From a virus: a DNA stretch of 64,000 bases. The stretch lies in IMG/VR virus record IMGVR_UViG_3300032214_000715, positions 175,164 to 239,163 of that record; one strand, given 5' to 3'. The number at the start of each line of letters is the position of its first letter. Positions within the stretch are counted from its first letter, which is position 1. Shown in pieces: positions 25,327 through 40,471 of this stretch. Under the pieces are notes generated by a model. That model was given only the letters and a program-made list of their open reading frames with translations. It did not search any database and was not told the origin of the DNA. The position numbers and the translations under genes are program-made.

Positions 25327-25842
25327 TCATTCTCCTTTTAAGAATTCGTTGATGTCTAGTGAATAATAAATTGAATTTATTTTGTGTACTCCAATCAAAT
25401 ACAATACATAACTTGCTACACTGCTACCGCGGCCCACTCCCCAGACGATATTATTTGTTCTCATAGTATCTACTAAGTATTTTAGATACTGTAGTAGTGA
25501 GAAAGCATTGCGATCCAAATACATTAGTAGTTCTTCGCCAACTCGCTGACGCTCAGCATCAGTTTCACACTGTAGTAACACCCATTCGGCTATATCTAAA
25601 TTTTTATATTCGTCTGGCATTTTCCAGTTAGACTGACATTGTTGATCATAATGATCTGTACTTAGTGAATTAGATTCCCACTGAGTTAGTGATATCATAT
25701 CAGTTAAGTCCAACTCGTTGTAGAGTTGGACCACGTTGAAATCAACCACACACTGTTTTGGACGCCATTCAGGGTCAATCATTAACTGATTTACCACATC
25801 ATCTTCGCTTAGTATTACTTGACCGTGAACATCTACTCTCAT
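25327..25842 (-). CDS. DnaE-like polymerase fragment A: palm GRGS segment (171 aa)
   Basis: The C-terminal 70 residues (EELLMYLDRNAFSLLQYLKY, VWGVGRGSSVASYVLYLIGV, then INSIYYSLDINEFL) align by eye with bacterial DnaE just before its catalytic aspartates (GPGRGSGAGSLVAY...LDP...LLFERFL). The gene stops exactly where DnaE would continue into PDFDVDF; that continuation is found in the gene at 39875-40471. No PHP domain. Start uncertain: I use the ATG at 25842; a TTG at 25878 would add 12 residues. Neither has a Shine-Dalgarno, and the ATG sits in a hairpin (25835-25849). Possible role: half of a split C-family polymerase or a domesticated remnant. Confidence 0.75.
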   Translation of the reverse strand: MRVDVHGQVILSEDDVVNQLMIDPEWRPKQCVVDFNVVQLYNELDLTDMISLTQWESNSLSTDHYDQQCQSNWKMPDEYKNLDIAEWVLLQCETDAERQRVGEELLMYLDRNAFSLLQYLKYLVDTMRTNNIVWGVGRGSSVASYVLYLIGVHKINSIYYSLDINEFLKGE

Positions 25843-25863
25843 AGAGAGTATGATACTAGTATC
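25835..25863 (-). promoter_or_regulatory. Two adjacent hairpins at the start of DnaE-like fragment A
   Basis: ACTCTC-TAT-GAGAGT (complement at 25835-25849) encloses the candidate ATG at 25842, and 3 nt upstream lies the 12-nt palindrome GATACTAGTATC (25852-25863). Together they could block or position translation initiation in place of the missing Shine-Dalgarno. Confidence 0.4.
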
Positions 25864-25887
25864 TACAGAACATATCAAGATATTTGG

Positions 25888-26121
25888 TTATTTTATGTCT
25901 ATTTTTTCGCCCAGTTGTTTAGATTTTTTATCTAGCATTTCCACTTGTCTTCTTCCATATTCTGCTTTGTAACTATTGAGTACCATAATCAACTGATTCA
26001 TCATCGGCTGATTATGCGTTCTACTAGCAAATAAAATTTTGCTTGATAAATTGCTAATAGTCTCTTGTAGCTCTTCAAGTGATTTTTCAGATAAATCACC
26101 TACTAATGGATGTGTAATCAT
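25888..26121 (-). CDS. Conserved T4-like phage protein, unknown function (77 aa)
   Basis: Entirely helical, charged: HPLVGDLSEKSLEELQETIS, then a second helix with MMNQLIMVLNSYKAEYGRRQ and a Lys-rich end. It resembles a small conserved protein I recall in many T4-like marine phages. ATG lies 3 nt after the preceding stop. No catalytic or binding motif; probably an assembly or adaptor protein, but this is a guess. Confidence 0.7.
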   Translation of the reverse strand: MITHPLVGDLSEKSLEELQETISNLSSKILFASRTHNQPMMNQLIMVLNSYKAEYGRRQVEMLDKKSKQLGEKIDIK

Positions 26122-26124
26122 AAT

Positions 26125-27297
26125 TTAAGAAGTGGGTGGGACATTGCCTATAATAATGTCGTTTGATCTTGCCACGCCAGTTCCAAACATATTCATTGAC
26201 GCTTCCGATGTGTACAATCTTGTATAGAATCTTTCTCCTGTTTCTGGAGTCAAGCTGTCGGTGGCCAAAGTAATACTAAACGAAGCAGTATTATTATTGA
26301 CTATAACACTTCCCCATGGAGGACTTGGAGACTGAGCATCTTGAGGGGATGCGCCATTTACGCCGAATGTAGTCCACCATAGTACAGTTCCATTACTAAC
26401 ATTAGTGGTAGTAATACTAAATGTAATGGTTTGTCCTTCATCTACTTGAGTCCCGTCAGCAGGAGCAGTAAATTGATATGTCGGATTTAATGGAACTGGC
26501 GGAGGAGTAGGAGCTGGAGGTGCTGGAGTTGTAGTGAACGATGCCAACTGTACTTTTTTCCAGATCGCTGTAGTCCCATCATAGTTACCCACGCACATAT
26601 AAAGATAGTTTCCGTCAATTGCCATAGTTCCTATCTTATCTCCAAATCTACCCACACTTGATGTTGGAGCTAAAGCAGACACTTGAAATGTTTTGCGTGG
26701 GCGATTTACTGGAACTATGGTTAGCGTTTCACCGCAATTTTTAGTGTAGATTATATAGTGTAGTTCAGTAACAGTATCGGGAACAGTGACGCTAAAACCA
26801 CCAGCAGTCTCGGTGTAATTTTCAATACTTAGTTTACTATCATCAAACTGAGCCGGAAAATTAATGACGCTTGAATTATTGGCAATCGGAACAGTTAATA
26901 TCAAATGAGTGCTACATAATGGATATTCACCCGATATTGAACTCCACTTCATAAAGTTCAACGTTACATTTCCAGTAACAGTTCCGTAATGTACGTCTGC
27001 CTTTGATACGTCTACAGTTACTGTGCCACTCAGATTTGAACCTAAATTTTTTGCGGTTCTACTAAATCCTTGTGTTTGAGCATTACTTATCAATCCGTGA
27101 TTCATATCATTATCAAGCACAGTGCCGGACAATGAACTCTTTAGTATTGCCTTTGATTGTAGATCGCTCAATTCACTTGCGGTGATATCCAAATTGGTTT
27201 TTATTCCACTGAAATTATCTCTAAATCCCTGAGTGTTATTGTTAACACCGGGGACAGGATAATTTATATCAATAGACCCTGTATTTATTGTACTCAT
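26125..27297 (-). CDS. Fibre/virion protein with Calx-beta-like C-terminus (390 aa)
   Basis: The N-terminus INYPVPGVNNNTQGFRDNFS is a signature of short fibre or virion proteins in T4-like marine phages (compare GDPLRTAFQKINSNF at 60826). The middle includes a beta region and VPDTVTELHYIIYTKNCGET. GDKIGTMAIDGNYLYMCVGN resembles the fibre motif that ends in TAIWKKV. After a Pro-rich linker (PAPPAPTPPPVPL), residues about 275-390 (VDEGQTITFSITTTNVSNGT, then LYTSEASM) match a Calx-beta or Ig-like domain. A weak late element (AGTAAATA, 27314-27321) lies upstream. Probable surface-exposed virion protein. Confidence 0.78.
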   Translation of the reverse strand: MSTINTGSIDINYPVPGVNNNTQGFRDNFSGIKTNLDITASELSDLQSKAILKSSLSGTVLDNDMNHGLISNAQTQGFSRTAKNLGSNLSGTVTVDVSKADVHYGTVTGNVTLNFMKWSSISGEYPLCSTHLILTVPIANNSSVINFPAQFDDSKLSIENYTETAGGFSVTVPDTVTELHYIIYTKNCGETLTIVPVNRPRKTFQVSALAPTSSVGRFGDKIGTMAIDGNYLYMCVGNYDGTTAIWKKVQLASFTTTPAPPAPTPPPVPLNPTYQFTAPADGTQVDEGQTITFSITTTNVSNGTVLWWTTFGVNGASPQDAQSPSPPWGSVIVNNNTASFSITLATDSLTPETGERFYTRLYTSEASMNMFGTGVARSNDIIIGNVPPTS

Positions 27298-27321
27298 AAT
27301 TATTTCCCGTAACTATTTACT

Positions 27322-30300
27322 TCACAGTATTACTGCTTCTATTTTTTTAACTTCATCCAACTCGCTTGACTCAATGGCTATAGCAAAAACATTACTGTAA
27401 TCAATTACGTCAATGATTTCATTTACAGCATTAATTGAGATAGCGTAGCCATTATTGTGTGCTATCAATCTATCTCCTTTATTGACTTTGCCAATTACCT
27501 TTACTGGGACTCTACCCTTTAGTGCTACGTATATTCCATTTATTAAAGCAGAATTCATCATATAAGCTGGATTTTTACTTATTACTCCAATAGCTTTATC
27601 TCTAAATGATGAAGCTGTTATTTCTGCTGCTCCGCCAATAGACACTACCGTTCCGTAATCATAGTTTTCATCGGACAAGTATTTCTCAGCTAAGTCGGCA
27701 TACTGAGCGCTAGTAGCAACCCCGTTAAATTTTACAGCATTAAGCTCGCCGTTTGAATTTCTACAAGCAATACTATTTGCTGTTCCCACGCCGGCCGTAT
27801 CTACTCTAGCTTCTCTCCAAGAATCAGTTGATATATCAACTACTTTAAGTTTTGTGACCGTGACGATTTGATTTGAATCTATCGTTAATCCATTTCCGAT
27901 CTTGATTCCACCTAGAACACTATCCGTGGCAACTGGTAATTCATAAACAGATGAAGCAGCAACTGATATAACTCCGTTGGCATCTATAGTTACATTGCTT
28001 CCCTGCTTGACACCACCAAGTGTAGATGAAGTAGCTATCGGTAATTCATAAACAGATGAAGCAGCAACTGATATGACTCCATTGGCATCTATGGTCACAT
28101 TACTTCCCTGCTTGACACCGCCCAGCACTGAGCTAGTAGCTATCGGTAATGAATAAGGAGCAGCAACTGATATAACTCCGTTGGCATCTATAGTTACATT
28201 GCTTCCTTGCTTGACTCCACCTAATATGGATGAAGTAGCTATCGGTAATTCGTAAACAGATGGAGCAGCAACTGATATAACTCCGTTGGCATCTATAGTT
28301 ACATTACTTCCCTGTTTTACACCACCCAGTACTGAGCTAGTAGCTATCGGTAATTCGTAAACAGATGGAGCAGCAACTGATATAACTCCGTTGGCATCTA
28401 TAGTTACATTACTTCCCTGAATAACTCCACCCAGTGTAGATGAAGTAGCTATCGGTAATGGGGGTGCTGACACCGCAGCAGAAACCCATTCTGTTCCATT
28501 CCATTTTAAATAATCATTAGTTTGTTTATTTCCGGTAGATACATTTAACAACTCATCTAGTGAATCGCGTTGACGTATTAAATAATTTGTCTGACTAATT
28601 ATTGATCTAGCGTCAGTTTCCATCTTTGCTATTAATACTCTAGTAAAAGAACTAGGCAATTCTATATCGGACTTAAAAACGGTTACAGATGTTGTATCGT
28701 CATCATTTTTTAATACATAGATATAATTAATTGAATTAGCAGAAAGACTAATGCTCTGTGTTGGAATAGTAGTGTAGTACCCACCTATAAATAGTGGGCA
28801 CGTTGTAACATACGCAATTAATCCAGTAGCACTTTCAGTAGACACATAAATCTGGTTTCTAGGTTTACTACCTGTTAGCCACTCTAGTTCTGTTAGTTCT
28901 GTTTTAACCCCAGTTACATCTTTGGACGACAGAAATACCATAGAGTCATAATTACCGCTTGAAGCGGCTCTATAGTATCCTAGAGCAGTACTATATCCAA
29001 AGGATCCGCCAGGATAACCATTGGTTGATGTGTATCCTCCTGAGCCAGTAGATGTTTCAGCAAAGCTAGACACGTGAGAAGTACTAACGATGTCCGAGCT
29101 AATTTCTATAGATGCCCAATAAAATGCTCTTCCGCCAACTACATTTATACCAAAATTTACTAATAACTTCCCGCTATTAGTTAATAACGTCGGGCCACTA
29201 AATTCAATTTGATTGATATTGTCACCGCGATTTGTTTTACCGTAATCAATTTCTGTTTGAAAGACGGAATTTGTGTTTAGCGTCCAAGTACCATTGGTAC
29301 ACTTGGCCAAATAGCACATGCCGACTGAATCTTTAACTATGGCATAGTATTTGGGAGTGATAGTATTTGCGTCCCAGCAAATATGAATCACAGTTATTCC
29401 AGATTTTCCATTAAGTGTGGTTGGTATTGATGGTACGATAATGTTTGTGTTTGTATAAGTTCTAGTGGCGCCCGTGCTGTTAATAGTGTAAATTGGTTCA
29501 TTTCCTACTATCCAACAGTAGCTTGGTGTAGTTCCAACCACCGTAGTTGAGAAATTGGTAATAGACCCATTATTTTTTATTACAGCAGGAGCATTAGCTA
29601 AAGGATCTAAATTTATATCAGAATTACTTAATATCAACGTATCATTAGTTTGTCCCTGAGCCTTTGAGGCAAACTCAGTCTTGCTGAATGTAGTTTGTAT
29701 AATTTTTGTTCCGTAAGTTACTGATCCTGCTGAAAAATACATATTATTGTCTATTACATAGACCGAATCGCTGTAAACATACTTGGACCAGGGAGACGCA
29801 TCAATTATTCTTTCGGTAAAACTGGTATATCTAGCGGAATTGTTTATGCTTAATGTTTTGTAAGTGAACCCACTAGTGTGTGGCAAAACATATACATCTC
29901 CTATATCAGTTGAAGTCCACGTACTTCTAAATAATTGAAATATTGTTCCGCTATACTCATCTGTTACAAGAGAAGTGGAGTAGCCGGCGCCACCCAATCC
30001 CTGACTCATACCTCCGTTATCCGTATCCCACGTGGAGTCGCTTAACTGATTATATCTAAAAGTTCCAGATTTAATTGGAATTAAATTAACAGTAGTTCCG
30101 CTACCACTTTCTATCCAGGATTTTGGTATAGACCATGATATGTCAAGTGCTACACCCTGACCAACTGATGCTCCTGTGCTAGTGGTATATACATACCAGA
30201 TATGAAATCTTTGATGAAAAGTTTCCGAAAATGAATTCCAGGTAAACCCATAAGAATTATTGGGCGCATATCCTAGTAAAGGCAAAACGTTTGGAGCAAT

Positions 30301-31956
30301 TCTTCCTTGACCAGTGGTGTCGGAAGTGTTAACCATAGTGACTTTATCATACAACAGTTGAGAGCGTAGTAAAGAAAGATTAGCATCATACACTTTTAGA
30401 GTTACTGTATTAGTATCCGAACTTACGTCCGATACTAATATTCTATCGCCACTAGTAGTTGATACTAAAGAGAAATTGGTTCTGCTAGATAATGATGTTA
30501 CGTCATAAGCAAGCGTCCAATCTCTCCACTTAGACGAACCGTATGTCTTTGCTATTACTATTCTAGTAATCGTTTCTGGTTTTTGAATTGTGGTTAGTTT
30601 TAAAACTATAAAATTAGTACCTAGATTTAAAACATCCTGAACCTTCTCATTAACATTTAAAAACGTGGCGCTTATGAGTTCATTATCAAAAATTAAACTA
30701 TCAGTACTTTTTATTCTATAAGCTTTAGCTACATTTCGTGATCCTACTGGAGTTGACGTAGAAAAGTAAAATACTTGATTTCCAGTTTTATCAACAAACA
30801 TAAAATTGGTGGCGTTAAATGAGCCCTGAGAAAAATTAAAACTTCCATATACCGGGATATAATTCTCTTTTAGATACCCAGCAAACGGAGAAAAATTCAA
30901 AAAGTCCTTTATATCAGCGCTAGATACGGAAATGGTTCCGGTCGTTTCGTCAGTTGTAATTCTTTCTCCAATTCTTACTCCGCCCAATGTAGAACTAGTA
31001 GCTTTCGGTAATTCGTAAACTGGCGGAGCAGCAACTGATATAACTCCGTTGGCATCTATAGTTACATTACTGCCCTGTTTTACACCACCCAGTACTGAGC
31101 TAGTAGCTATAGGTAATGAATAAGGAGCAGCAACTGATATAACTCCGTTGGCATCTATAGTTACATTACTGCCCTGTTTTACACCACCCAGTGTAGATGA
31201 AGTAGCTATCGGTAATGAATAAGGAGCAGCAACTGATATAACTCCGTTGGCATCTATAGTTACATTACTGCCCTGTTTTACACCACCCAGTGTAGATGAA
31301 GTAGCTATAGGTAATGAATATGAATAGCTAGGAATGTTTAAAATATTTCCAGTAAGAGTGGATACTCCGCTACTTCCATTTGTAGTTAGAATAATTGGGC
31401 CTTGATAATCAGTACCCTCAACAGCAAAATCTATACTAGTTCCGTTACCTTTTAATAATCCGTTTACAGTGGTTGATATAGTTATTTCAGCAGTAGTTGA
31501 ATTTTTACTCACAGTGCCAAAAAAACCGTTTTCATTTTTTATAGCTACAGTGTTAATATACCCAGCTGGATTAGATACAGAATAGCCGCCCAAGTTTGAT
31601 AGTGCCGTTGATGGCGAAGTTGCTCCGGTGCCGCCGTTTTCTACAGATATAGGATAATCAACTGGTGAGGTGACAGATAATAATCCAAAGTCATCTACCG
31701 TTAATCCTTCACCAACTTTTATTGCCCCTAATGTGGTGGGACTCGCTATGCCAACAACACCGGTAGCACCACTGTGCTCAGTCAAAATTTCAGTAACATT
31801 AGGCCCATCTGAGGTTTCAGAATGAAGCGCGGGGTCATTTCCTATGTACAATCTTCTGGCATCGGTAGCATATCCAATCTCACCAACGTCCAGTTGAGGC
31901 AAATTTTCATTTGCGCCTGTTCTTAATAAAATTTTGCTTATCTGTTTTATAGGCAT
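27322..31956 (-). CDS. Giant tail fibre with ten near-identical repeats (1544 aa)
   Basis: The longest gene here. The N-terminus (RTGANENLPQLDVGEIGYAT, then RRLYIGNDP) is Mtd_N-like. Four repeats of about 32 residues (core ATSSTLGGVKQGSNVTIDAN, GVISVAAP) lie at residues 215-345. A large globular region of about 800 residues follows (PVYGSFNFSQGSFNATNFMF and onward), then six more copies of the same repeat. The last 150 residues (KFNGVATSAQYADLAEKYLS, YGTVVSIGGAAEITAS, KGRVPVKVIGKVNKGDRLIA) form a conserved fibre C-terminus seen in T4-like phages. Late element GATAAATA at 31978-31985, with a leader of about 16 nt. Probable long tail fibre. Confidence 0.88.
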   Translation of the reverse strand: MPIKQISKILLRTGANENLPQLDVGEIGYATDARRLYIGNDPALHSETSDGPNVTEILTEHSGATGVVGIASPTTLGAIKVGEGLTVDDFGLLSVTSPVDYPISVENGGTGATSPSTALSNLGGYSVSNPAGYINTVAIKNENGFFGTVSKNSTTAEITISTTVNGLLKGNGTSIDFAVEGTDYQGPIILTTNGSSGVSTLTGNILNIPSYSYSLPIATSSTLGGVKQGSNVTIDANGVISVAAPYSLPIATSSTLGGVKQGSNVTIDANGVISVAAPYSLPIATSSVLGGVKQGSNVTIDANGVISVAAPPVYELPKATSSTLGGVRIGERITTDETTGTISVSSADIKDFLNFSPFAGYLKENYIPVYGSFNFSQGSFNATNFMFVDKTGNQVFYFSTSTPVGSRNVAKAYRIKSTDSLIFDNELISATFLNVNEKVQDVLNLGTNFIVLKLTTIQKPETITRIVIAKTYGSSKWRDWTLAYDVTSLSSRTNFSLVSTTSGDRILVSDVSSDTNTVTLKVYDANLSLLRSQLLYDKVTMVNTSDTTGQGRIAPNVLPLLGYAPNNSYGFTWNSFSETFHQRFHIWYVYTTSTGASVGQGVALDISWSIPKSWIESGSGTTVNLIPIKSGTFRYNQLSDSTWDTDNGGMSQGLGGAGYSTSLVTDEYSGTIFQLFRSTWTSTDIGDVYVLPHTSGFTYKTLSINNSARYTSFTERIIDASPWSKYVYSDSVYVIDNNMYFSAGSVTYGTKIIQTTFSKTEFASKAQGQTNDTLILSNSDINLDPLANAPAVIKNNGSITNFSTTVVGTTPSYCWIVGNEPIYTINSTGATRTYTNTNIIVPSIPTTLNGKSGITVIHICWDANTITPKYYAIVKDSVGMCYLAKCTNGTWTLNTNSVFQTEIDYGKTNRGDNINQIEFSGPTLLTNSGKLLVNFGINVVGGRAFYWASIEISSDIVSTSHVSSFAETSTGSGGYTSTNGYPGGSFGYSTALGYYRAASSGNYDSMVFLSSKDVTGVKTELTELEWLTGSKPRNQIYVSTESATGLIAYVTTCPLFIGGYYTTIPTQSISLSANSINYIYVLKNDDDTTSVTVFKSDIELPSSFTRVLIAKMETDARSIISQTNYLIRQRDSLDELLNVSTGNKQTNDYLKWNGTEWVSAAVSAPPLPIATSSTLGGVIQGSNVTIDANGVISVAAPSVYELPIATSSVLGGVKQGSNVTIDANGVISVAAPSVYELPIATSSILGGVKQGSNVTIDANGVISVAAPYSLPIATSSVLGGVKQGSNVTIDANGVISVAASSVYELPIATSSTLGGVKQGSNVTIDANGVISVAASSVYELPVATDSVLGGIKIGNGLTIDSNQIVTVTKLKVVDISTDSWREARVDTAGVGTANSIACRNSNGELNAVKFNGVATSAQYADLAEKYLSDENYDYGTVVSIGGAAEITASSFRDKAIGVISKNPAYMMNSALINGIYVALKGRVPVKVIGKVNKGDRLIAHNNGYAISINAVNEIIDVIDYSNVFAIAIESSELDEVKKIEAVIL
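27860..28465 (-). repeat. Six tandem about 100-bp fibre repeats (C-terminal block)
   Basis: Inside the 1544-aa fibre gene, copies with the shared core GGCATCTATAGTTACATT (plus-strand reading, small variants) recur about every 90-105 nt. The DNA is nearly identical between copies, including at third codon positions, which implies recent duplication or gene conversion. The last copy is the most diverged. Confidence 0.85.
30940..31325 (-). repeat. Four tandem about 95-bp fibre repeats (N-terminal block)
   Basis: Same unit as the block at 27860-28465. Three copies are almost identical in DNA and the fourth (nearest 30950) is diverged. The two blocks lie 2.5 kb apart in the same gene and orientation, so recombination between them would delete the central domain in frame. 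Confidence 0.85.
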
Positions 31957-31977
31957 AGTATACTCATTGAATATACT

Positions 31978-31985
31978 TATTTATC
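31978..31985 (-). promoter_or_regulatory. Late-promoter element GATAAATA
   Basis: GATAAATA on the minus strand, 21 nt before the ATG of the giant fibre gene. Confidence 0.65.
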
Positions 31986-31986
31986 A

Positions 31987-32700
31987 CTACGTTAATGTGT
32001 AATACTGCTCTACTCTTTTCCACCATAATGAACGATATTTTTCAAATTCATCGCCCTCAAGTATAAATTCCTGATACACGGGTTCAGTTAATAGCTTTTG
32101 TTGTTGATCAACTTCGGGCTTAACACACATTAAAACAACGCCGCGTTTTATATTTGTTCCGTGTATTTCATTATGAGCCTCGGAATAAGCCGCTAGTTGT
32201 AGAAAGTAATCGTCAATCCACTCACGCTTTTTTGGCTTGTTTGTTTGTTTAAAATCCAATATCGATTCTTTATTTTCGTGTATACCAACACAATCGGTAG
32301 TACCAGCATATACTTCAGGAAAAAATAACGGAACCTCAATACCCCAATATTCAGTTACATTTAAAAGTCCCTGATTTATAACTACATTTGCCATAGCGTG
32401 ACTAGCCCAAGAAAAGGGATTCTGGTCTCGCTCTTTTATTTCTCCAGTTTTAACATAGTGCTCTAGATAGGCATGCATGCGAGTGCCGCGACTAGCAGCC
32501 TCGGTAGTAATTTGCTGAGCACGATCATTACCAACACGATTGCGCCACTGTTGTAGTATTTTCTTTTTTTCCTCTGGCTTAGTTGCTTCTAAAATAGTAG
32601 TAACGCTTGCTAACTTGTTTCCGTCAGGAGTGGAATAACGTCTTTGCCCATTAATGGTCTGACGATCTAATGGTTGATAATTAAATTTTGGATTGTACAT
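31987..32700 (-). CDS. RecB-like PD-(D/E)XK exonuclease (237 aa)
   Basis: Nuclease core: EAASRGTRMHAYLEHYV (conserved GTxxH helix), VPLFFPEVYAGTTDCVGIHE with the catalytic Asp, SILDFKQTNK (D-x-K triad) and DDYFLQLAAYSEAHNE (QxxxY helix of Cas4/RecB/lambda-exo-type nucleases). Probably a DNA end-processing nuclease used in recombination or host DNA degradation. I use the ATG at 32700 (MYNPKF); an in-frame ATG at 32718 would start inside a hairpin. A TTGACA/TATGCT pair (32709-32738) ends 8 nt before this ATG and no Shine-Dalgarno is present, so the message may be leaderless. Confidence 0.85.
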   Translation of the reverse strand: MYNPKFNYQPLDRQTINGQRRYSTPDGNKLASVTTILEATKPEEKKKILQQWRNRVGNDRAQQITTEAASRGTRMHAYLEHYVKTGEIKERDQNPFSWASHAMANVVINQGLLNVTEYWGIEVPLFFPEVYAGTTDCVGIHENKESILDFKQTNKPKKREWIDDYFLQLAAYSEAHNEIHGTNIKRGVVLMCVKPEVDQQQKLLTEPVYQEFILEGDEFEKYRSLWWKRVEQYYTLT

Positions 32701-32706
32701 AGTAAA

Positions 32707-33105: not shown

Positions 33106-33106
33106 A

Positions 33107-33811
33107 TTATCTGCGCTCGCGACCTAAACTAGTTGGTCTTTCTGGCTCTTCTTCTGGTTCTTCGGGCAGTTCAGGTAGTTCAGGTAGTTCTTCACCCATA
33201 TCTGGTTCTTCTCCTGGCATTCCTGGCATTTCGGGAGATTCTTCTCCTGGAGCAGCTGGCATCGCACCACCATCTCCGGTCAGACCGCCTAATGCTCCAC
33301 TTACGGCTTCCTTCGCTGTCTTTACGGCTTCCTGTAAAGTAGTTAGAGCTTGACCAACGGCCGTATTGAACTGATCGGCGTCACTTGATTGAAAGTCTGG
33401 AGAGTTTTTTATGCCCTCTACTACAGCATTCAATTCTTCAACATTCATCTTACTAACTTGTTCCATCATTTTTTGAATGTCGTCAATCATACTTTGAGCC
33501 GCAAGCAATACTTGAGATTTTTGAATCTCTTCATTTTCTATTACTATGCGAGTTTGTGATCTCAAGTCGCGCAAGTGACCACTTAGCGCTTGTTCCATCA
33601 TTAATAGTTTTAAATAAGCAGGATCGCGATGACTAGAATGTATTCTTGAACTTGCTTTAGACTCATTTATAAGAGAACGTACTTTAGTAAGCATTGAATG
33701 AGTTTTTCTAATATCAAGCTGTTCTAAGTTCATATCGTATTTGAAATTTTCACGCAGCACTTTAGTTGCTAATTTGCTCTTTTTGTTTTCGCGCAGGTCG
33801 GTTAAGTTCAT
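33107..33811 (-). CDS. Probable head/core-type virion protein (234 aa)
   Basis: Long helical region at residues 1-165 (MNLTDLRENKKSKLATKVLR, PAYLKLLMMEQALSGHLRDL, QSMIDDIQKMMEQVSKMNVE). A Gly/Ala hinge and a Pro/Glu-rich acidic tail follow (LPELPELPEEPEEEP). This arrangement, helical rod plus acidic Pro-rich end, fits scaffolding or internal head proteins. I recall relatives among structural proteins of marine T4-like phages. The N-terminus overlaps the upstream gene by 50 nt. Role is inferred, not shown. Confidence 0.65.
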   Translation of the reverse strand: MNLTDLRENKKSKLATKVLRENFKYDMNLEQLDIRKTHSMLTKVRSLINESKASSRIHSSHRDPAYLKLLMMEQALSGHLRDLRSQTRIVIENEEIQKSQVLLAAQSMIDDIQKMMEQVSKMNVEELNAVVEGIKNSPDFQSSDADQFNTAVGQALTTLQEAVKTAKEAVSGALGGLTGDGGAMPAAPGEESPEMPGMPGEEPDMGEELPELPELPEEPEEEPERPTSLGRERR

Positions 33812-34250
33812 TTTGAAATCCTCGTTCTTGGCACATTTTTGCCATTATTATGTATTTATCTATTTCTCTTTGAAATTTGTTTTGTCTTTCAATGTCCTGT
33901 TCGTACTTTACACTATAAAGTAAAAAGTCAAAATTCTTATTTTTTTTGAGCTTTGAATGTATCAACTTATCTACCGCAACGCTCTCTAGCTTTAGATCCA
34001 GTTCTAATATTCTAGCAGTCTCATAAAACTTATTGCTTCTGTCTAAAATTGTCCAAGCAATCGCGTGCTTCATTTTATGAAACACAAATGTTTTTTCATC
34101 GCGATATCTATAAACAGTAATCTTGTGTTTGTCTTGACGAATTTCATACTGCTCAAAAATTGTATGGGTCCCGTCGTCGTTTTTAAAGAACATACAGTTT
34201 AGTAACGACGGGCTGATTAAATTTTGTATATGATGTAAAGTATTATTCAT
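33762..34250 (-). CDS. Conserved T4-like phage protein, unknown function (162 aa)
   Basis: ATG overlaps the end of the upstream gene by 8 nt, and the 3' end overlaps the next gene by 50 nt. Sequence: FEQYEIRQDKHKITVYRYRD (beta hairpin), KHAIAWTILDRSNKFYETAR, then a basic helical C-terminus REIDKYIIMAKMCQERGFQN ending with a Lys/Arg patch. The pattern resembles a conserved unnamed family in T4-like marine phages. The order 34243-33762-33107 with overlaps suggests a functional group. Confidence 0.72.
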   Translation of the reverse strand: MNNTLHHIQNLISPSLLNCMFFKNDDGTHTIFEQYEIRQDKHKITVYRYRDEKTFVFHKMKHAIAWTILDRSNKFYETARILELDLKLESVAVDKLIHSKLKKNKNFDFLLYSVKYEQDIERQNKFQREIDKYIIMAKMCQERGFQNELNRPARKQKEQISN

Positions 34251-34689
34251 CTTCTACTATCTCAAACTCAACATTTTTTAAATTTGATGAAGTATTTAGC
34301 TGACTTACGTTTGTTACTGACTCGTCCAAATTTAAAAGCATAGGAACTCCATCGCAATCGGTTAGAAGTTTTCCTAAATTAGAGTTTTCATCAGCAAATA
34401 CTCCACTGTGACTAATAGTAAAAGAAAATGACCACATTATTACATCGTCTGTCTTAAACTGTATTTTGTCTCCCCATCGCAAATCTTTCTTAGAAACACT
34501 GAGTTGTTTTGGGGTAGTTATATTTTCTGGTTGACTACGCATACTTATTACTTGTAGCATAGTTTCAAAATTGGCTTGTTGATTTCTTTGCTTTACGTAT
34601 TCAGCTTGATTCGTAACAACAGAATGATTTTGTCGGTGACTGATATTAGTATTGGTAATATCAAATAGAGTGTAGCATCTAATCTTCAT
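34243..34689 (-). CDS. Conserved T4-like phage protein, unknown function (148 aa)
   Basis: MKIRCYTLFDITNTNISHRQ, then NFETMLQVISMRSQPENITT, MWSFSFTISHSGVFADENSN and LLTDCDGVPMLLNLDESVTN form a pattern I recall from a conserved marine T4-like family without known function. A late-like element (GGTAAATA, 34698-34705) ends 8 nt before the ATG and there is no Shine-Dalgarno, so the transcript could be leaderless. It is the first gene of the unit 34689-32749. Confidence 0.72.
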   Translation of the reverse strand: MKIRCYTLFDITNTNISHRQNHSVVTNQAEYVKQRNQQANFETMLQVISMRSQPENITTPKQLSVSKKDLRWGDKIQFKTDDVIMWSFSFTISHSGVFADENSNLGKLLTDCDGVPMLLNLDESVTNVSQLNTSSNLKNVEFEIVEDE

Positions 34690-34697
34690 AGTATTAG

Positions 34698-34705
34698 TAT
34701 TTACC
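34698..34705 (-). promoter_or_regulatory. Possible late-promoter element GGTAAATA
   Basis: Six of eight bases match TATAAATA. It lies between the terminator at 34713-34742 and the ATG at 34689, where a new promoter is expected because transcription has just been terminated. Confidence 0.45.
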
Positions 34706-34712
34706 GACCAAT

Positions 34713-34742
34713 AAAAAACCCAGGAATATTCCTGGGTTTTTT
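34713..34742 (-). terminator. Rho-independent terminator after virion gene 34760-35149
   Basis: 30-nt perfect palindrome: six A, CCCAGGAATATTCCTGGG, six T. It lies 17 nt past the stop of the isolated virion gene. Confidence 0.9.
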
Positions 34743-34759
34743 GAGTGCTTACTGTACTA

Positions 34760-35149
34760 TTAAGCTAGTCCGCCAGCAGTAACTACTGCGCCAGCCAAGT
34801 TATAGCCATTTACTGTTCCTAGTGCTTGTATCGCAGACTGTAGAGAGGCAGCAGCGTCTCCGCCTGTTGGGTACATAGCAACGCGGAATACTCCATTATT
34901 GTTGAATTGATACATGTGAATGGTACTCATTTGAGCCATTACACGTAGAACTGCTTCAACGGCGCCGCCTGTGCCAAACTGTCCGCTAACACCATCAGCG
35001 CCCAAGTCGCCGGTGTAAAAGTCTAGCTTTGGACCCTGAGGTTGAATTGGGATGCCAGCAGAACCACTTGTGGCCCCGTTTACATAAGTACCTACGTCAT
35101 ATACGGCTACGCCACTTGCGTCACCATTTGTTCTTGTAAAACTTGCCAT
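34760..35149 (-). CDS. Small Gly/Ala-rich virion protein, monocistronic (129 aa)
   Basis: Strong AAGGAG Shine-Dalgarno, its own late promoter (GATAAATA, 35193-35200) and its own terminator (34713-34742), so it forms a single-gene late unit. Sequence: MASFTRTNGDASGVAVYDVG, PQGPKLDFYTGDLGADGVSG, TGGAVEAVLRVMAQMSTIHM, then GTVNGYNLAGAVVTAGGLA. It is rich in Gly, Ala and Val with almost no charged residues in the second half. The pattern resembles a small abundant virion protein family of marine T4-like phages. A capsid-decoration or similarly high-copy role is inferred from the expression context. Confidence 0.75.
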   Translation of the reverse strand: MASFTRTNGDASGVAVYDVGTYVNGATSGSAGIPIQPQGPKLDFYTGDLGADGVSGQFGTGGAVEAVLRVMAQMSTIHMYQFNNNGVFRVAMYPTGGDAAASLQSAIQALGTVNGYNLAGAVVTAGGLA

Positions 35150-35192
35150 TTTTAAATCTCCTTGTTGTTATGAGGTTAAAATCCTCTATACT

Positions 35193-35200
35193 TATTTATC
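35193..35200 (-). promoter_or_regulatory. Late-promoter element GATAAATA
   Basis: GATAAATA on the minus strand, 43 nt before the ATG at 35149. The transcript would begin close to a short GAGG/CCTC stem (35172-35186) ahead of the Shine-Dalgarno. Confidence 0.65.
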
Positions 35201-35219
35201 ATTTTGATAAAAAAAATAG

Positions 35220-36026
35220 TCATAGACGATAATAAGCGTGAAACAGCTTATTTAGCTTGTCTATCGTTGCGGTCGTAGTAACTTTCATATCACCAACAAC
35301 TGGAGTCAGTGAGCGACCGGTGACATCTATCCAAACGCTGTTTACGAAATCGTATCTAAAATCTCTGTTCTCAGTAATAACTCGTGGCTCTGGAGTTATG
35401 TCGCTACCAGGAGGATTAAAAGAGTCAAATTTAGATTTAGACATAGGATTACTAACTGGTAATTTTCCACCCGCTCCTATTCTGTTGTAGAAAATTGTCC
35501 ATACCGTTTTATCAGGAGGTTGATCATTTCCTAGCGGTGTTGCTCCTGCGGGCGCAGATTGTTCCTGTGATGAATATACTATATTCCACACGGCATTAGA
35601 TAAAATCTCTGCTATTTTAGGGTTTAGTCTGCTTCCGGCAGCGGTGTAAGCAGTAACAAATTCATTAATAGCATTATCTATAGACGTCAATTGTTGCTGA
35701 GTTGGACGCAATTTATTATTAACAGTGATCTCGTACATTAAAAACTCTTTAACTACCTGATCAACAGATCCAACGGCTTCATTGGCAATAATAGACTCAA
35801 CCAAATGATTAAAAGACGAGTATGACTGATTCTGTCTAGTTTCGGCCAACCCGTTAGATTTAAATTTCTGTTGAAGTCTACTGTAGAAACCGGTAAACCA
35901 CTTTTTATTGGCAATTTCCATATCTCTTTTATCGTAGGCTACCGCTTGTCTTGTTTGACCTAACCAGCCGCGCCTTGCCGCCCAGTCCGTTACGGCATTC
36001 TCATCAACAAATTCACTACTTTTCAT
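35220..36026 (-). CDS. Phage protein with possible capsid-targeting N-terminus (268 aa)
   Basis: The N-terminus MKSSEFVDENAV resembles the T4 capsid-targeting peptide (MKTYQEFIAEA). Then come WAARRGWLGQTRQAVAYDKR and helical regions (SFNHLVESIIANEAVGSVDQ, TAAGSRLNPKIAEILSNAVW), a Pro/Gly linker near residue 160, and FRYDFVNSVWIDVTGRSLTP. No enzyme motif. The start overlaps the upstream gene by 11 nt. Possibly an internal head protein packaged through its N-terminus; this depends on the targeting-peptide idea. Confidence 0.65.
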   Translation of the reverse strand: MKSSEFVDENAVTDWAARRGWLGQTRQAVAYDKRDMEIANKKWFTGFYSRLQQKFKSNGLAETRQNQSYSSFNHLVESIIANEAVGSVDQVVKEFLMYEITVNNKLRPTQQQLTSIDNAINEFVTAYTAAGSRLNPKIAEILSNAVWNIVYSSQEQSAPAGATPLGNDQPPDKTVWTIFYNRIGAGGKLPVSNPMSKSKFDSFNPPGSDITPEPRVITENRDFRYDFVNSVWIDVTGRSLTPVVGDMKVTTTATIDKLNKLFHAYYRL

Positions 36027-36270
36027 TTGAATCCTCTGATCGCTTTAAGCTACGAACAAACTTTCCTTGATCGCGATTTTTGATAGCAATCAATAATTTT
36101 TTTTCTAAAACGGCAGCTTGCTCAGCAGTATAGTTACGCTGTATTACTTCAAGTAAATGTATAGCACTGGAAATAACATTCACCGCACGATTTTCAATTA
36201 TGTGCTTAGTGTCATGGCTTCTGCTGATGCTTTCAAGCTCTTCTAACAATGTTTTAGTTTGTCGTTTCAT
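36016..36270 (-). CDS. Conserved small helical protein, unknown function (84 aa)
   Basis: MKRQTKTLLEELESISRSHD, then AVNVISSAIHLLEVIQRNYT and a basic C-terminus (RDQGKFVRSLKRSEDSNEK). A GATAAATA element (36277-36284) ends 6 nt before the ATG and there is no Shine-Dalgarno, making it a leaderless candidate. It heads the pair with 35220-36026. Unnamed in relatives as far as I recall. Confidence 0.7.
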   Translation of the reverse strand: MKRQTKTLLEELESISRSHDTKHIIENRAVNVISSAIHLLEVIQRNYTAEQAAVLEKKLLIAIKNRDQGKFVRSLKRSEDSNEK

Positions 36271-36276
36271 ATTAAA

Positions 36277-36284
36277 TATTTATC
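36277..36284 (-). promoter_or_regulatory. Late-promoter element GATAAATA, adjacent to ATG
   Basis: GATAAATA followed by 6 nt and then ATG. T4 late transcripts start about 6 nt after this element, which would leave a leader of about 1 nt. Confidence 0.6.
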
Positions 36285-36298
36285 TTGTATTACGATAA

Positions 36299-37729
36299 TT
36301 AATTAGTCTTCTTTAAATTACTAAGCATTGATTTAAGCTTGGCACTTTGTACGTCTGCCTGTACTGCTTTCACAGGAGTGGACAATATCTCTCCAGTTTC
36401 AGTATCAATCTTGGGTGCCACTACTGTTCCAACAGTACTACTGGTTTTAATCTTATTCAATAGTGTGCTAGCACTATTACTGCTGGCAACATAACCAGTA
36501 CTATCTCCGTCATCAAAGATTCTTAGCGTATCAACATTGAATGACAGATCAATCTTTTGCCCTACGCCGCTGCTGCTACGAGTTTTCATCAATTGAATTT
36601 GATACTGACCCTTTTCACGCATATGACGACTAGTAAAAATACCAAACACATTATCAGCGGTATTGATTTTAGAAATGCCACCGCTAATATGACTGTGATC
36701 AAATTCAATTTCTTCTACCGCACTACGATTAAGCTGACTGGCAGTTACTAACAACACATTTAATTCTTTGGCAAGATTACGTATCTCTTCACTAACGTAC
36801 TTGTCTTTAATAAACAAATCACTAGGGCTAACTTTAGCACTTACTGGCATCAACAAGTCCAAATAGTCAATACACACAAAATCTATTCTGATTCCGGTTT
36901 CAATACTAAGAGTCTTAATGTAAGCACGTATATCATTAATGTTACTTTGTGCTGGCATATACTTGATGTAAAACTTTCCAGCTTTCTTGGCTGTCATTTT
37001 AACTTTAAGTTCAACATCATCTAGATTCTTAAACACATCCTTTGTTGATGTGTCTGTCATCATACTATCAATACGCCAAGCACACAGTTCTTCGCTAAGT
37101 TCTAGCGTTACATAGACTCCGTTCAATCCAGCTAATGCCCAATTCACACTTAAGTTCTGCATGAACAGTGACTTGCCGCTGCCACTACCCCCAGCAAATA
37201 TCTGTAACTCACCACGATTAAACCCACCGTACAATTTATTATCAAGACAGGGCCAGCCAGTGCTAATTTGCCCGTTGTTGTTTTTAATCTTATTCAATCT
37301 AGCACGTGGATCGGCAAAGTAATCAGTGCCCATATCTTTAGTCAGTGATATTTGTACAGCGTCCTTAATTAGCTTTTCTACTGGATCATAATTGCCTTTT
37401 TCAAGTAAGTCAGCACTCTTTAGAATTGCTCGTTCTAGTTCTTGTCTGCGAGTGAATACTTCAAAAGAATCTAGAAACCAATCTATGTCGCTTTTTCTTA
37501 GGTCGTCAATAACCGTTAAGCTAACTTTAGTAACCGCATGAATTTGATCACTGTCCGGGACACTGGTATATTTCTCAGCAAATTCTTTAATGAATTTGAC
37601 CGCTGGACGCAGCGATTTATCAAAGTTTTCTGTATTCAGAATGTTACTGATTCTAGTGTATAACTGCGGATCACTAATCATCATTCTTAGAAACAGTTCT
37701 TGAATTTCTATTCCGTATTCTGTGCTCAT
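36299..37729 (-). CDS. gp41: Replicative DNA helicase, DnaB-type gp41 (476 aa)
   Basis: N-terminal helical domain (residues 1-145), then a RecA-like core: Walker A GGSGSGKSLFMQNL (around residue 180), YVTLELSEELCAWRID (motif H1a), VCIDYLDLLMP (Walker B), VTASQLNRSAVEEIE and HISGGISKINTADNVFGI (motif H3 region). It unwinds the replication fork 5' to 3' as a hexamer with the primase. It overlaps the primase gene by 4 nt (ATGA). The last 70 residues are a disordered Ser/Thr/Val-rich linker and a basic helix (AKLKSMLSNLKKTN). Confidence 0.93.
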   Translation of the reverse strand: MSTEYGIEIQELFLRMMISDPQLYTRISNILNTENFDKSLRPAVKFIKEFAEKYTSVPDSDQIHAVTKVSLTVIDDLRKSDIDWFLDSFEVFTRRQELERAILKSADLLEKGNYDPVEKLIKDAVQISLTKDMGTDYFADPRARLNKIKNNNGQISTGWPCLDNKLYGGFNRGELQIFAGGSGSGKSLFMQNLSVNWALAGLNGVYVTLELSEELCAWRIDSMMTDTSTKDVFKNLDDVELKVKMTAKKAGKFYIKYMPAQSNINDIRAYIKTLSIETGIRIDFVCIDYLDLLMPVSAKVSPSDLFIKDKYVSEEIRNLAKELNVLLVTASQLNRSAVEEIEFDHSHISGGISKINTADNVFGIFTSRHMREKGQYQIQLMKTRSSSGVGQKIDLSFNVDTLRIFDDGDSTGYVASSNSASTLLNKIKTSSTVGTVVAPKIDTETGEILSTPVKAVQADVQSAKLKSMLSNLKKTN

Positions 37730-38691
37730 TTAATTCTCTTTTTTGCCATTTCTACTTTAATTTTACTTGTAGTAGCTGATTGAAATATGCTTAATAGTGT
37801 TGGAATTTTTCCATATCTACGAACAGCGTCATTAACATCCTTTACGTCACTGTGCCACTCAGGAATACTTATCTTATATCCTAACTCTAAAGCACGATCA
37901 CAAATTTGTAATCCACTTTTATCCTGATCAGGCACAACTATTATTGTTCTGTTCAATCTGTTGATTAATTGTGCTTGCTCATCACTGATATTGCTACCCA
38001 TATAAGCACATCCACCAATGCTAATAGCATCAAATTGGCCCTCAACCATAATACACGATGACCAATTATCGTTTTTGAACTGAGCATCTATATTGAACAC
38101 GTATCCAGACGGCTGATCAGATAGATACTTAGGTTTTCTGCCATCTAAAAATCTACAGGTATTTCCCACAATGTCGCCATTGTAAAAATATGGGATTATG
38201 ATTCCTGGTCTAGTAGCATCACTATCTACATAATATGAATAGGAATGTTCAGACAGTCCACGACTACGCAGATACTCAATATATAGTTGATGTTCAGAAT
38301 AGCTAGCATTCAATCTAACGCACGTATCACTTAATTGTTTTACTGGAAAGTTTATAACTACTGCTTTTGACTTTTTAGTTCTTAAATCCAATACATCACG
38401 CTGGCTGAAGCTTTCAAAGCTTATCTTATTGATAACGTATTCGTCCAATCCGCACCAACTTAACAACAATCTAGTGTTTTTAGTTAATTGTTTTCCAAGT
38501 CTAAATCCAGCTTTGTAGTGACAATTGAAACAGTGATAGGTCCAATTTTGATTATCATCAAATATTATTCCGCCACGCATTCTGCGATCAGCACTATGAC
38601 CACGATTAACGCAGCAAGGAGCGTTGAAACTGTACCATCCACTTTGAGTACGTTTCTTTTTACCCGGAACAACAGACAATATATCTAACAT
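37726..38691 (-). CDS. gp61: DNA primase, gp61-like (321 aa)
   Basis: An N-terminal zinc-binding region (NAPCCVNRGHSADRR, then WTYHCFNCHYKAGF) supplies Cys/His ligands. A Toprim domain follows, with the acidic motif MVEGQFDAISIG (around residue 220) and VVPDQDKSGLQICDRALELG (DxD). It makes RNA primers for lagging-strand synthesis and couples to gp41. A sigma70-like promoter (38700-38728) ends 8 nt before the ATG, without a Shine-Dalgarno, so the primase-helicase message may be leaderless. Confidence 0.92.
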   Translation of the reverse strand: MLDILSVVPGKKKRTQSGWYSFNAPCCVNRGHSADRRMRGGIIFDDNQNWTYHCFNCHYKAGFRLGKQLTKNTRLLLSWCGLDEYVINKISFESFSQRDVLDLRTKKSKAVVINFPVKQLSDTCVRLNASYSEHQLYIEYLRSRGLSEHSYSYYVDSDATRPGIIIPYFYNGDIVGNTCRFLDGRKPKYLSDQPSGYVFNIDAQFKNDNWSSCIMVEGQFDAISIGGCAYMGSNISDEQAQLINRLNRTIIVVPDQDKSGLQICDRALELGYKISIPEWHSDVKDVNDAVRRYGKIPTLLSIFQSATTSKIKVEMAKKRIK

Positions 38692-38699
38692 ATACTACT

Positions 38700-38728
38700 A
38701 GTATACGCTACTGCGGCGAAGTATTCAA
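38700..38728 (-). promoter_or_regulatory. Sigma70-like promoter of primase-helicase unit
   Basis: On the minus strand TTGAAT (38723-38728), a 17-bp spacer, then TATACT (38700-38705). The ATG begins at 38691, so the predicted start site is about 2 nt from it. Confidence 0.6.
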
Positions 38729-38738
38729 GTTTATAGAC

Positions 38739-39500
38739 TTATCTGACCAGTATTTTGGTCACACTGCCGATGGCGTCATCAGTCTCAAACTTTACTCGTA
38801 TGAATGGATGAAATCCCTCTATATTATAGAATCTATTTTCCGTTACGTTTGTAAAAGAAATTGAATCAGTAATGTCGTAAGCATGAGCAAAGTTGGACAG
38901 TGTACTTCCTTGAAAAATTATTCTGCCAGTATAGTTTTTAAAATACAACTGAAACGTGTAAAAATTTTGTTGTTTGGTGTAAAAGCTACTACTATAGTGA
39001 ATGGTCGGAGCGGTTAACACTGTGTAGTCGGGTATAGTTAATTCATAAGATGGCACATAAGAACTTAACACGCTATCCATTATTCTTACCACACCACGAG
39101 CCCCGCCTTGAGCGTCTACGAATACTGGATAATCAAATTCATCCACTGGTATTTCAATACTGTAATAGCATAGTTGACGATCTAGTTTATCCAATTCTTC
39201 GGAGCTAACTCTTAGACCAGCTATTCCGGTCACTGGGAAAATATACACTAATGTTTTTTGTAGTAATATTTTTTTGCCGTCTGGATTAATAATTCTAGCT
39301 GTTATTTCTTTATTGGAAATATCAACTGGCTTTTGCTCCTGATTTACAAAAGCAAACTCAATCAAATTGTCCACTCCGCGATGTAGTATTAGTTCTTTTG
39401 CGTACACTTTGTTATACCTTATCTTTCCAGATGAGGCTGCCTCTAATAAAACCACTTGCGTTCTTTGATTGTATAAATAAACTTGAGTCTGGGCTGCCAC
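38739..39500 (-). CDS. Virion structural protein, BppU-like N-terminus (253 aa)
   Basis: GTG at 39500 with GAGGA upstream. Residues 1-115 (QTQVYLYNQRTQVVLLEAAS, NLIEFAFVNQEQKPVDISNK, ITARIINPDGKKILLQKTL, AGLRVSSEELDKLDRQLCYY) follow the Ig-like pattern of N-terminal domains in baseplate upper proteins. The C-terminal half is beta-rich (FYTFQLYFKNYTGRIIFQGS). A late element (CATAAATA, 39518-39525) lies upstream. Likely a baseplate or fibre-attachment protein; a single gene between replication units. Confidence 0.72.
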   Translation of the reverse strand: MAAQTQVYLYNQRTQVVLLEAASSGKIRYNKVYAKELILHRGVDNLIEFAFVNQEQKPVDISNKEITARIINPDGKKILLQKTLVYIFPVTGIAGLRVSSEELDKLDRQLCYYSIEIPVDEFDYPVFVDAQGGARGVVRIMDSVLSSYVPSYELTIPDYTVLTAPTIHYSSSFYTKQQNFYTFQLYFKNYTGRIIFQGSTLSNFAHAYDITDSISFTNVTENRFYNIEGFHPFIRVKFETDDAIGSVTKILVR

Positions 39501-39517
39501 TTTTCTGTCCTCTTAAC

Positions 39518-39525
39518 TATTTATG
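39518..39525 (-). promoter_or_regulatory. Late-promoter element CATAAATA
   Basis: CATAAATA on the minus strand, 17 nt before the GTG at 39500. The motif overlaps the ATG of the divergent plus-strand gene at 39523. Confidence 0.5.
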
Positions 39526-39900
39526 ACCAATGATTTTTTTCAAAAACTGAGCGATTCTCACCCGTTCATAACCGTTTGTAGCTATGCCGGACAAGAATAC
39601 GTGGGTGTAATTCAAAATCGTGATGATTTTATAACTACATTCTATGATTACGGTTCTATAGTAGATCAGAAATTAAAACAGCTATATTTGTCGTTGGGAG
39701 ATCAATGGTGGTGGGAGAGCAACAGATTAATTCCCATCAACATCTTTCTACGCGATGATTGGGCTATTTTTAAGCCATATCTTAGAACGTTTAACAATAA
39801 AGGTCTGAATATTCTTCACGGGCCTGCCACGTGTATGAGCGATCTTGCTAAAAAACGAGTTAAGCGTCGTAGCATTACTCTTGTGAAGAAAATGCTATAG
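39523..39900 (+). CDS. Conserved phage protein, unknown function (125 aa), plus strand
   Basis: A lone plus-strand gene between minus-strand units. Motifs: HPFITVCSYAGQEYVGVIQN, FITTFYDYGSIVDQKLKQLY, GDQWWWESNRLIPINIFLRD, then a basic C-terminus KKRVKRRSITLVKKML. The WWWESNR...IPINIFL block is one I recall from a conserved unnamed family in marine T4-like phages. Its 3' end overlaps the convergent DnaE-like gene by 26 nt. No Shine-Dalgarno is evident. Confidence 0.72.
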   Translation: MTNDFFQKLSDSHPFITVCSYAGQEYVGVIQNRDDFITTFYDYGSIVDQKLKQLYLSLGDQWWWESNRLIPINIFLRDDWAIFKPYLRTFNNKGLNILHGPATCMSDLAKKRVKRRSITLVKKML

Positions 39901-40471
39901 CATTTTCTGTCAAAAGATTCATATTTACAACTATCAAATTACTGTATGCAACGGCGTGGGCTTTTTTGAACATATAACCGTCATCCTTATTTTTGTCCCA
40001 TACTGTTTTTGCCACCTCCGCCCAAGATTTACCAATTAGATTCCGCTTTCCAGGTCTTATAACAGCCAGAAACATTGCCATTCTAGTAATACTATTGATT
40101 GATTCTGGCATTTTCAGCATACTATCGTAGTGATTTCCAATGTGAATCAATTTACTAAAGTAATCGCGATTCTGTAATAGTGACCAATCTGGTTCTTTCA
40201 TTAACTCAACCAAATGCTGTTCATCTTTTACATATTTGTAAATCCATACGTTCAATAAATCTAATTTAATATACCCACGTTGCTCAGCCATCTCATAATC
40301 TAGGGCGGCCGTTTTATGAATCGGATCATAGGGTATGTCGGTCGGATAAACTCCAGTGTTGTGCTTTTTTACTACATTATCTTTGCGTATAGAAGCCGAA
40401 GTAACATCTACGATTTTTAATATCGCATCCCGATCAGCAAAATCTATATCAATATCACTATTTAATTTCAT
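39875..40471 (-). CDS. DnaE-like polymerase fragment B: catalytic Asp motifs and finger segment (198 aa)
   Basis: Begins MKLNSDIDIDFADRDAILKI, matching the DnaE palm motif PDFDVDF...RD with both catalytic aspartates (D8, D10 here). RGYIKLDLLNVWI (D71) matches LVKFDFLGLRTL, which holds the third catalytic Asp. Later MAMFLAVIRPGKRNLIG parallels ALYRPGP, and FKKAHAVAYSNLIVVN (168-183) parallels the finger motif FNKSHAAAYA. DnaE reads directly from the end of the fragment at 25327-25842 into this one. The ATG overlaps the upstream zinc-finger gene by 4 nt. It could be the second half of a split C-family polymerase or a repurposed pair; activity is unproven. Confidence 0.78.
   Translation of the reverse strand: MKLNSDIDIDFADRDAILKIVDVTSASIRKDNVVKKHNTGVYPTDIPYDPIHKTAALDYEMAEQRGYIKLDLLNVWIYKYVKDEQHLVELMKEPDWSLLQNRDYFSKLIHIGNHYDSMLKMPESINSITRMAMFLAVIRPGKRNLIGKSWAEVAKTVWDKNKDDGYMFKKAHAVAYSNLIVVNMNLLTENAIAFSSQE

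What the first reader, a model, noticed from the sequence alone, without database searches (positions are those of the whole stretch)
25327..40471. A C-family (DnaE-like) polymerase core split into two genes 14 kb apart
The gene at 25327-25842 ends with the DnaE palm segment GVGRGSSVASYVLYLIGV...DINEFL, which in DnaE runs straight into PDFDVDF. The gene at 39875-40471 starts with that next piece (SDIDIDFADRD). It also has the third catalytic Asp motif (YIKLDLLNVW), an IRPGK segment and a finger-like FKKAHAVAY motif. All three catalytic aspartates of DnaE have counterparts (D8, D10, D71 of the second protein). Together the pieces are only about 370 residues, with no PHP, beta-binding or OB domains visible. 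A T4-like phage would be expected to use a B-family polymerase (gp43). This could be a trans-assembled minimal C-family enzyme, a primer-extension or repair factor, or a dead remnant with a new role. Relatives may exist in marine T4-like phages; I cannot say whether the split has been described.
Basis: partly seen in the sequence, partly recalled or inferred. Interest (0 to 1): 0.9.

Follow-up and report, generated by a model that had tools for sequence, protein, structure and literature searches.

The report
Two-gene minimal DnaE-like polymerase core
This large bacterial virus carries a stripped-down bacterial-type DNA polymerase catalytic core cut into two genes far apart; the split is real and widespread in such viruses, but it was already described in 2021, although nobody has yet reported testing what it does.

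Summary
The gene at 25327-25842 (N) ends in the DnaE GRGS half-palm. The gene at 39875-40471 (C) starts where N stops and carries the DIDIDF, KLDLLN and FKKAH motifs. Profile comparison, AlphaFold plus Foldseek, and residue mapping all place both in the C-family polymerase core; 23 of 28 near-invariant DnaE positions in the aligned segments are kept.

One correction: by E. coli numbering the catalytic triad D401/D403/D555 is D6/D8/D71 of C, not D8/D10/D71. D10 is D405. The thumb and most of the fingers are gone.

Both genes occur in RaK2-like jumbo myophages and in at least 579 (C) and 593 (N) IMG/VR loci. Wherever both were located they are far apart. All 9 isolate genomes examined also carry a family-B polymerase. 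N sits by the clamp loader, C by the primase-helicase. No fusion or intein was found.

This architecture was published by Iyer et al. 2021 (PMC7824862). The window is a new, divergent member of a known kind. Most likely the two proteins assemble into a small dNTP-using C-family nucleotidyltransferase that is auxiliary to the family-B replicase. Physical assembly and activity remain untested.

The parts
25327..25842 (-). N piece (171 aa): N-terminal half of the DnaE palm with the GVGRGSS nucleotide-binding loop (R138 G139 S140 = E. coli R362 G363 S364)
39875..40471 (-). C piece (198 aa): C-terminal half of the palm with catalytic D6, D8, D71 (= D401, D403, D555), K69 (= K553), H37 (= H511), a shrunken finger segment with IRPGK, and FKKAH with H172 (= steric gate H760)
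24922..25323 (-). 133-aa protein of unknown function directly downstream of N in 104 of 106 N loci (phrog_14844); candidate partner
24561..24920 (-). GroES/Cpn10-like protein, conserved neighbour of N (103 of 106)
23327..24259 (-). gp44-like clamp loader, conserved neighbour of N (93 of 106)
40468..41178 (-). C2H2-zinc-finger-like protein (phrog_11058; zf-C2H2 match is below the Pfam cut-off); its stop overlaps the C start; conserved neighbour (79 of 82)
41150..41743 (-). 197-aa protein (phrog_11758), overlapping the zinc-finger gene; conserved neighbour of C (72 of 82)
39523..39900 (+). 125-aa protein (phrog_11637), convergent with C and overlapping its 3' end by 26 bases; conserved neighbour (79 of 82)
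37726..38691 (-). Toprim DNA primase downstream of C
36299..37729 (-). DnaB-like replicative helicase downstream of C

Best explanation
The two genes encode the two halves of one minimal C-family (DnaE-type) catalytic core, cut in the loop between E. coli residues about 393 and 400. After translation the two proteins most likely associate non-covalently. N supplies the GRGS loop that holds the dNTP triphosphate. C supplies the three metal-binding aspartates, the palm lysine and the steric-gate histidine. Together they would form a small nucleotidyltransferase that adds dNTPs to a 3' end. Lacking a thumb, most of the fingers, and the PHP, beta-binding and OB parts, it should not be a processive replicase. 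It most likely does short synthesis (gap filling, primer extension or hand-off, repair) beside the family-B replicase, probably tethered through the clamp-loader and primase-helicase machinery next to whose genes the two halves are encoded. Shown: homology, colinearity, residue retention, domain loss, co-occurrence, synteny. Inferred: assembly, catalysis, dNTP use, role.
For: Profile matches for both halves. Colinear, nearly contiguous mapping onto E. coli DnaE: N to 319-393, C to 401-420, 510-568 and 741-774. AlphaFold models of good confidence (pLDDT 86.8 and 84.0), with all 11 best PDB hits of C and the 13 best of N being bacterial Pol III-type polymerases. 23 of 28 near-invariant DnaE positions are the same near-invariant residue in the phage pair, against at most 6 in 20,000 column shuffles (optimistic, because the alignment itself favours matches). 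C D6, D8, D10, D71, K69, H37, H172 and N R138, G139, S140 are invariant. 9 of 9 isolate genomes and 13 of 22 long metagenomic contigs carry both halves. Replication-gene neighbourhoods are fixed for each half. Family-B polymerase in the same genomes, with intact motifs where read. The steric-gate role of H760 is from PMC8485763.
Against: No complex was modelled; only single chains could be folded. Finger residues that are invariant in DnaE (F609, Q610, Q687, E688, R709) and the thumb have no counterpart, so ordinary template-directed polymerisation is not assured. No biochemical work is known to me or was found in the library searches. Foldseek E-values are modest (3.6e-3 and 4.6e-3 at best).
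Confidence: 0.72

Rival explanations
1. The halves assemble, but the product is not a template-directed polymerase. It is a specialised nucleotidyltransferase (terminal addition, end or primer tailing) that reuses the Pol III palm.
For: Thumb reduced from about 89 to 12-13 residues and most of the fingers lost, including R709, Q687, E688. No PHP in 16 of 16 records; no clamp-binding or OB part within the 369 residues.
Against: The steric-gate histidine and the DnaE signature D405 are kept, as expected for DNA synthesis. The IRP[AG]K segment is near-invariant and may replace the lost finger contacts.
Confidence: 0.15
2. Catalytically dead remnant kept as a structural or regulatory subunit, for example a decoy of host Pol III.
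For: Small, stripped of most domains, and accompanied by a full family-B polymerase in relatives.
Against: All catalytic and nucleotide-contacting palm residues are invariant in 33 (C) and 58 (N) diverse homologues. Host-docking parts (beta-binding, tau-binding, OB) are exactly what is missing. Purifying selection (Ka/Ks 0.13-0.31 in the few unsaturated pairs).
Confidence: 0.07
3. The two halves never meet; each has its own function in its own cassette.
For: Always far apart, in separate conserved cassettes; no contig with adjacent or fused halves seen.
Against: Complementary cut at the same loop, co-occurrence in 9 of 9 isolates, and each half alone holds an incomplete active site. The ends facing the missing partner are among the lower-confidence stretches of the models.
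Confidence: 0.05
4. Split by frameshift or assembly error, or joined by a trans-splicing split intein as in cyanobacterial DnaE.
For: Cyanobacterial DnaE is a known two-gene polymerase joined by a split intein.
Against: Same split in hundreds of contigs and in isolates. N ends within 0-3 residues of EFL[KR] and C starts 4-6 residues before DIDIDF in most members, leaving no room for intein fragments. The scan for a direct fusion found none.
Confidence: 0.01

Closest known systems
Split minimal DNA polymerase III alpha of group 2.2 jumbo phages (Iyer et al. 2021, Viruses 13:63, PMC7824862)
   Same: Same thing: an N-terminal NTP-binding protein and a C-terminal metal- and template-binding protein, encoded by distant genes, beside a family-B polymerase and without other Pol III domains.
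   Different: This is a divergent metagenomic member (about 50% identity or less to isolates). The two genes are 14 kb apart, the closest pair I measured; isolates range from about 30 kb to over 180 kb.
RaK2, CBB, 121Q, PA5oct/MIJ3, Atu_ph07 and SCTP-2 jumbo myophages
   Same: Homologues of both halves with the same gene neighbourhoods.
   Different: CBB's N half was noted in its paper only as a truncated Pol III alpha (PMC5259590); the C half is often annotated as hypothetical or membrane protein.
Bacterial DnaE (E. coli Pol III alpha) and phage full-length DnaE
   Same: Palm motifs, catalytic triad, D405, steric-gate His.
   Different: One chain of roughly 770-1300 residues there; here two chains totalling 369 residues without PHP, thumb, most of the fingers, beta-binding or OB parts.
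Cyanobacterial split-intein DnaE (own knowledge; the split is noted in PMC3919608)
   Same: DnaE encoded by two distant genes.
   Different: There the cut is near the FNKSH motif (own knowledge) and an intein splices the parts together; here the cut is inside the palm and there is no intein.

Membership tests
C-family DNA polymerase (DnaE type) | Catalytic Asp triad D401, D403, D555 | tested here: met
   C D6, D8, D71, invariant
C-family DNA polymerase (DnaE type) | GRGS triphosphate-binding loop | tested here: met
   N R138 G139 S140, invariant
C-family DNA polymerase (DnaE type) | D405, which separates DnaE from PolC (Asn) | tested here: met
   C D10 invariant; criterion from PMC3919608
C-family DNA polymerase (DnaE type) | Thumb and complete fingers (R709, Q687, E688) | tested here: not met
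   No counterpart; finger family PF17657 only below cut-off, inside the C piece of relatives
C-family DNA polymerase (DnaE type) | N-terminal PHP domain | tested here: not met
   PF02811 absent from 16 of 16 records while present in 14 of 14 controls
C-family DNA polymerase (DnaE type) | Template-directed DNA synthesis | not testable with these tools
   Needs protein
Split minimal Pol III alpha of group 2.2 jumbo phages | Two separate proteins, NTP-binding half and metal-binding half | tested here: met
Split minimal Pol III alpha of group 2.2 jumbo phages | Distant genes | tested here: met
   14 kb apart here; about 30 kb or more in isolates
Split minimal Pol III alpha of group 2.2 jumbo phages | Family-B polymerase in the same genome | tested here: inconclusive
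   Not in this 239-kb linear record, which ends before the expected locus; present in 9 of 9 isolates and 16 of 22 contigs
Cyanobacterial split-intein DnaE | Intein fragments at the split | tested here: not met
   N ends at EFLKGE, C starts at MKLNSDIDIDF; no intein-sized extension in 106 N or 82 C loci

The most novel reading that the evidence does not exclude
The pair is a trans-assembled, thumb-less C-family enzyme whose two halves are delivered by two replisome sub-assemblies, N with the clamp loader and C with the primase-helicase. It would become active only where these meet, for example to extend or hand over primers to the family-B replicase.
Probability: 0.12. Interest if true: 0.75.

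Novelty: new member of a known kind. Interest (0 to 1): 0.38.

Why it matters
If the pair is active, it would be among the smallest natural C-family polymerase cores and would help define the minimum needed for Pol III chemistry. It would also mean that one virus carries bacterial-type and archaeo-eukaryotic-type polymerases together, as Iyer et al. argued for ancient replicons. The mapping given here (which residues are kept, which are lost, where the cut lies) makes a biochemical test straightforward. The architecture itself is already in the literature.

Tried and rejected
Fusion of N and C: an exact-pattern scan of 2.9 million viral contigs found none. Controls: the first half-pattern matches every N locus but the divergent L030, the second matches all 82 C loci. 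The scan covers a spacing of 84-114 nt only.

An apparent N fusion to the downstream gene in L030 was my own read-through artefact and vanished on re-calling.

Sequence search of C against PDB chains by phmmer gave nothing relevant; profile and fold comparison were needed.

T4 gp45-type clamp PF02916: none in 16 records, but the control set has no T4 relative, so this is weak.

DnaQ-type exonuclease PF00929: seven of nine isolates and one contig are over the cut-off; two isolates are not, and this record has none. It does not strictly track with the split enzyme.

Full report
WHAT WAS CHECKED. Both ORFs lie intact on the minus strand: N at 25327-25842 (171 aa) and C at 39875-40471 (198 aa). 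The window is the last 64 kb of a 239,163-base linear virus record. N matches Pfam DNA_pol3_alpha above its cut-off and phrog_11127; C matches no Pfam family but phrog_11778; both phrogs are labelled DNA polymerase.

HOMOLOGY TO DnaE. I built profiles from 58 N and 33 C homologues and from 10 bona fide DnaE-type proteins from plasmids and phages, E. coli DnaE among them. hhalign gives one strong match for N (residues 95-169 to E. coli 319-393) and three colinear matches for C (6-23 to 401-420; 36-84 to 510-568; 154-186 to 741-774). N stops at residue 393 and C starts at 401, so the cut lies in the loop between FLN and PDFDVDF. AlphaFold models have pLDDT 86.8 (N) and 84.0 (C). Against the PDB, the 13 best hits of N and the 11 best of C are all bacterial replicative polymerases of the Pol III type; against viral models, the named leading hits of C are phage DNA polymerases, two of them labelled DnaE. 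Foldseek E-values are modest, but no other fold competes.

RESIDUES. E. coli D401, D403 and D555 are the metal ligands, and D405 is conserved in DnaE but Asn in PolC (PMC3919608). By the alignment these are C D6, D8, D71 and D10. K553, H511 and the steric gate H760 (PMC8485763) are C K69, H37 and H172; R362-G363-S364 are N R138-G139-S140. In the aligned segments 23 of 28 near-invariant DnaE columns hold the same near-invariant residue in the phage pair; shuffled columns reach at most 6 (the alignment favours matches, so this is optimistic). No counterpart exists for the thumb (E. coli 421-509 is reduced to 12-13 residues) or for finger residues F609, Q610, Q687, E688 and R709. The IRPGK segment probably corresponds to R639-P640, as weak PF17657 matches inside the C piece of relatives suggest.

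DISTRIBUTION. tblastn finds N-like sequence in 97 and C-like sequence in 90 phage records: the RaK2/121Q/CBB group, PA5oct/MIJ3, Atu_ph07, SCTP-2, Phosso and others. All nine isolate genomes examined carry N, C and a family-B polymerase. Of 22 long N-bearing contigs, 13 carry C and 16 a family-B polymerase; of the six family-B genes read out, five show motif A (D-x-N-SLYPS) and all six motif C (DTDS). No PHP domain was found in 16 records. In the isolates N and C are about 30-45 kb apart in RaK2, 121Q, CBB, XbC2, MIJ3 and Vibrio phage 2.275, and over 100 kb in SCTP-2, Atu_ph07 and Phosso. No fused form was found.

SURROUNDINGS. N is followed by a 133-aa protein (104 of 106 loci), a GroES-like protein (103) and the clamp loader (93). 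C follows UvsW, two unknown proteins and a zinc-finger-like protein (79 of 82), and precedes a convergent 125-aa gene (79), the primase and the DnaB helicase. The same order is seen in phage CBB, where gene numbering puts the gp43-type family-B polymerase (CBB_263; PMC5259590) on the far side of the terminase (CBB_275). In the window the terminase is at 58.7-60.3 kb and the contig ends at 64.0 kb, so truncation is the likely reason for the absence of PF00136 from this record.

MECHANISM. Shown: homology, complementarity of the halves, retained active site, lost accessory domains, co-occurrence, synteny. Inferred: non-covalent assembly, nucleotidyl transfer with dNTPs, and an auxiliary role in short synthesis or repair. 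The retained steric gate argues for dNTP use; the lost thumb argues against processive replication. The conserved catalytic residues argue against a dead remnant; the missing docking domains argue against mimicry of host Pol III.

NOVELTY. Iyer et al. described exactly this in 2021: a phage-specific minimal Pol III alpha, split into two proteins from distant genes, beside family-B polymerase, proposed to reassemble and to act in synthesis of one strand or repair (PMC7824862). No later experimental work turned up in the searchable library, which misses most subscription journals. The window is therefore a new member of a known kind. What this work adds: the cut site, the residue-level account of what is kept and lost, the absence of fusions in the scan, the abundance in metagenomes, and the fixed separate gene cassettes.

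Noticed in passing
window 46121-49176 (seven copies, e.g. 47277-47308): A 32-nt repeat before successive small minus-strand genes; read on the minus strand it is TTGACA-17 nt-TATACT, i.e. a series of near-consensus sigma-70 promoters.
   Followed up: partly
relatives: Atu_ph07 (W05), MIJ3 (W06), G012, G019: The family-B polymerase is itself split into two ORFs in some relatives (578+418, 825+379, 577+421, 560+417 aa); in MIJ3 an intein/HNH insertion is published.
   Followed up: no
window 44252-44902, + strand: HNH_3 endonuclease gene against the local gene direction, probably a homing endonuclease.
   Followed up: no
window 47305-47757, - strand: HD-domain protein resembling RelA/SpoT-type hydrolases (PF13328, E 7e-5, below cut-off); possible (p)ppGpp hydrolase.
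   Followed up: no
window 15183-18232: Clp-type ATPase (phrog_4871) with an adjacent DnaJ-like gene, overlapping by 4 bases; together with the GroES-like gene at 24561 a rich chaperone set (DnaJ by eye).
   Followed up: no
window 27322-31956, - strand: Tail-fibre-like gene with 99-105-bp tandem repeats (VYELPIATSSTLGGVKQGSNVTIDANGVISVAAP units); related modules recur in other genes of the record.
   Followed up: no
locus L212 (Microbacterium phage Chivey gp57/gp58): Another split DnaE: two adjacent genes both annotated DnaE-like Pol III alpha (345 and 767 aa), cut before the palm.
   Followed up: no
16 jumbo-phage records: No gp45-type sliding clamp (PF02916) detected although a gp44-type clamp loader is present; either divergent or replaced.
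   Followed up: partly
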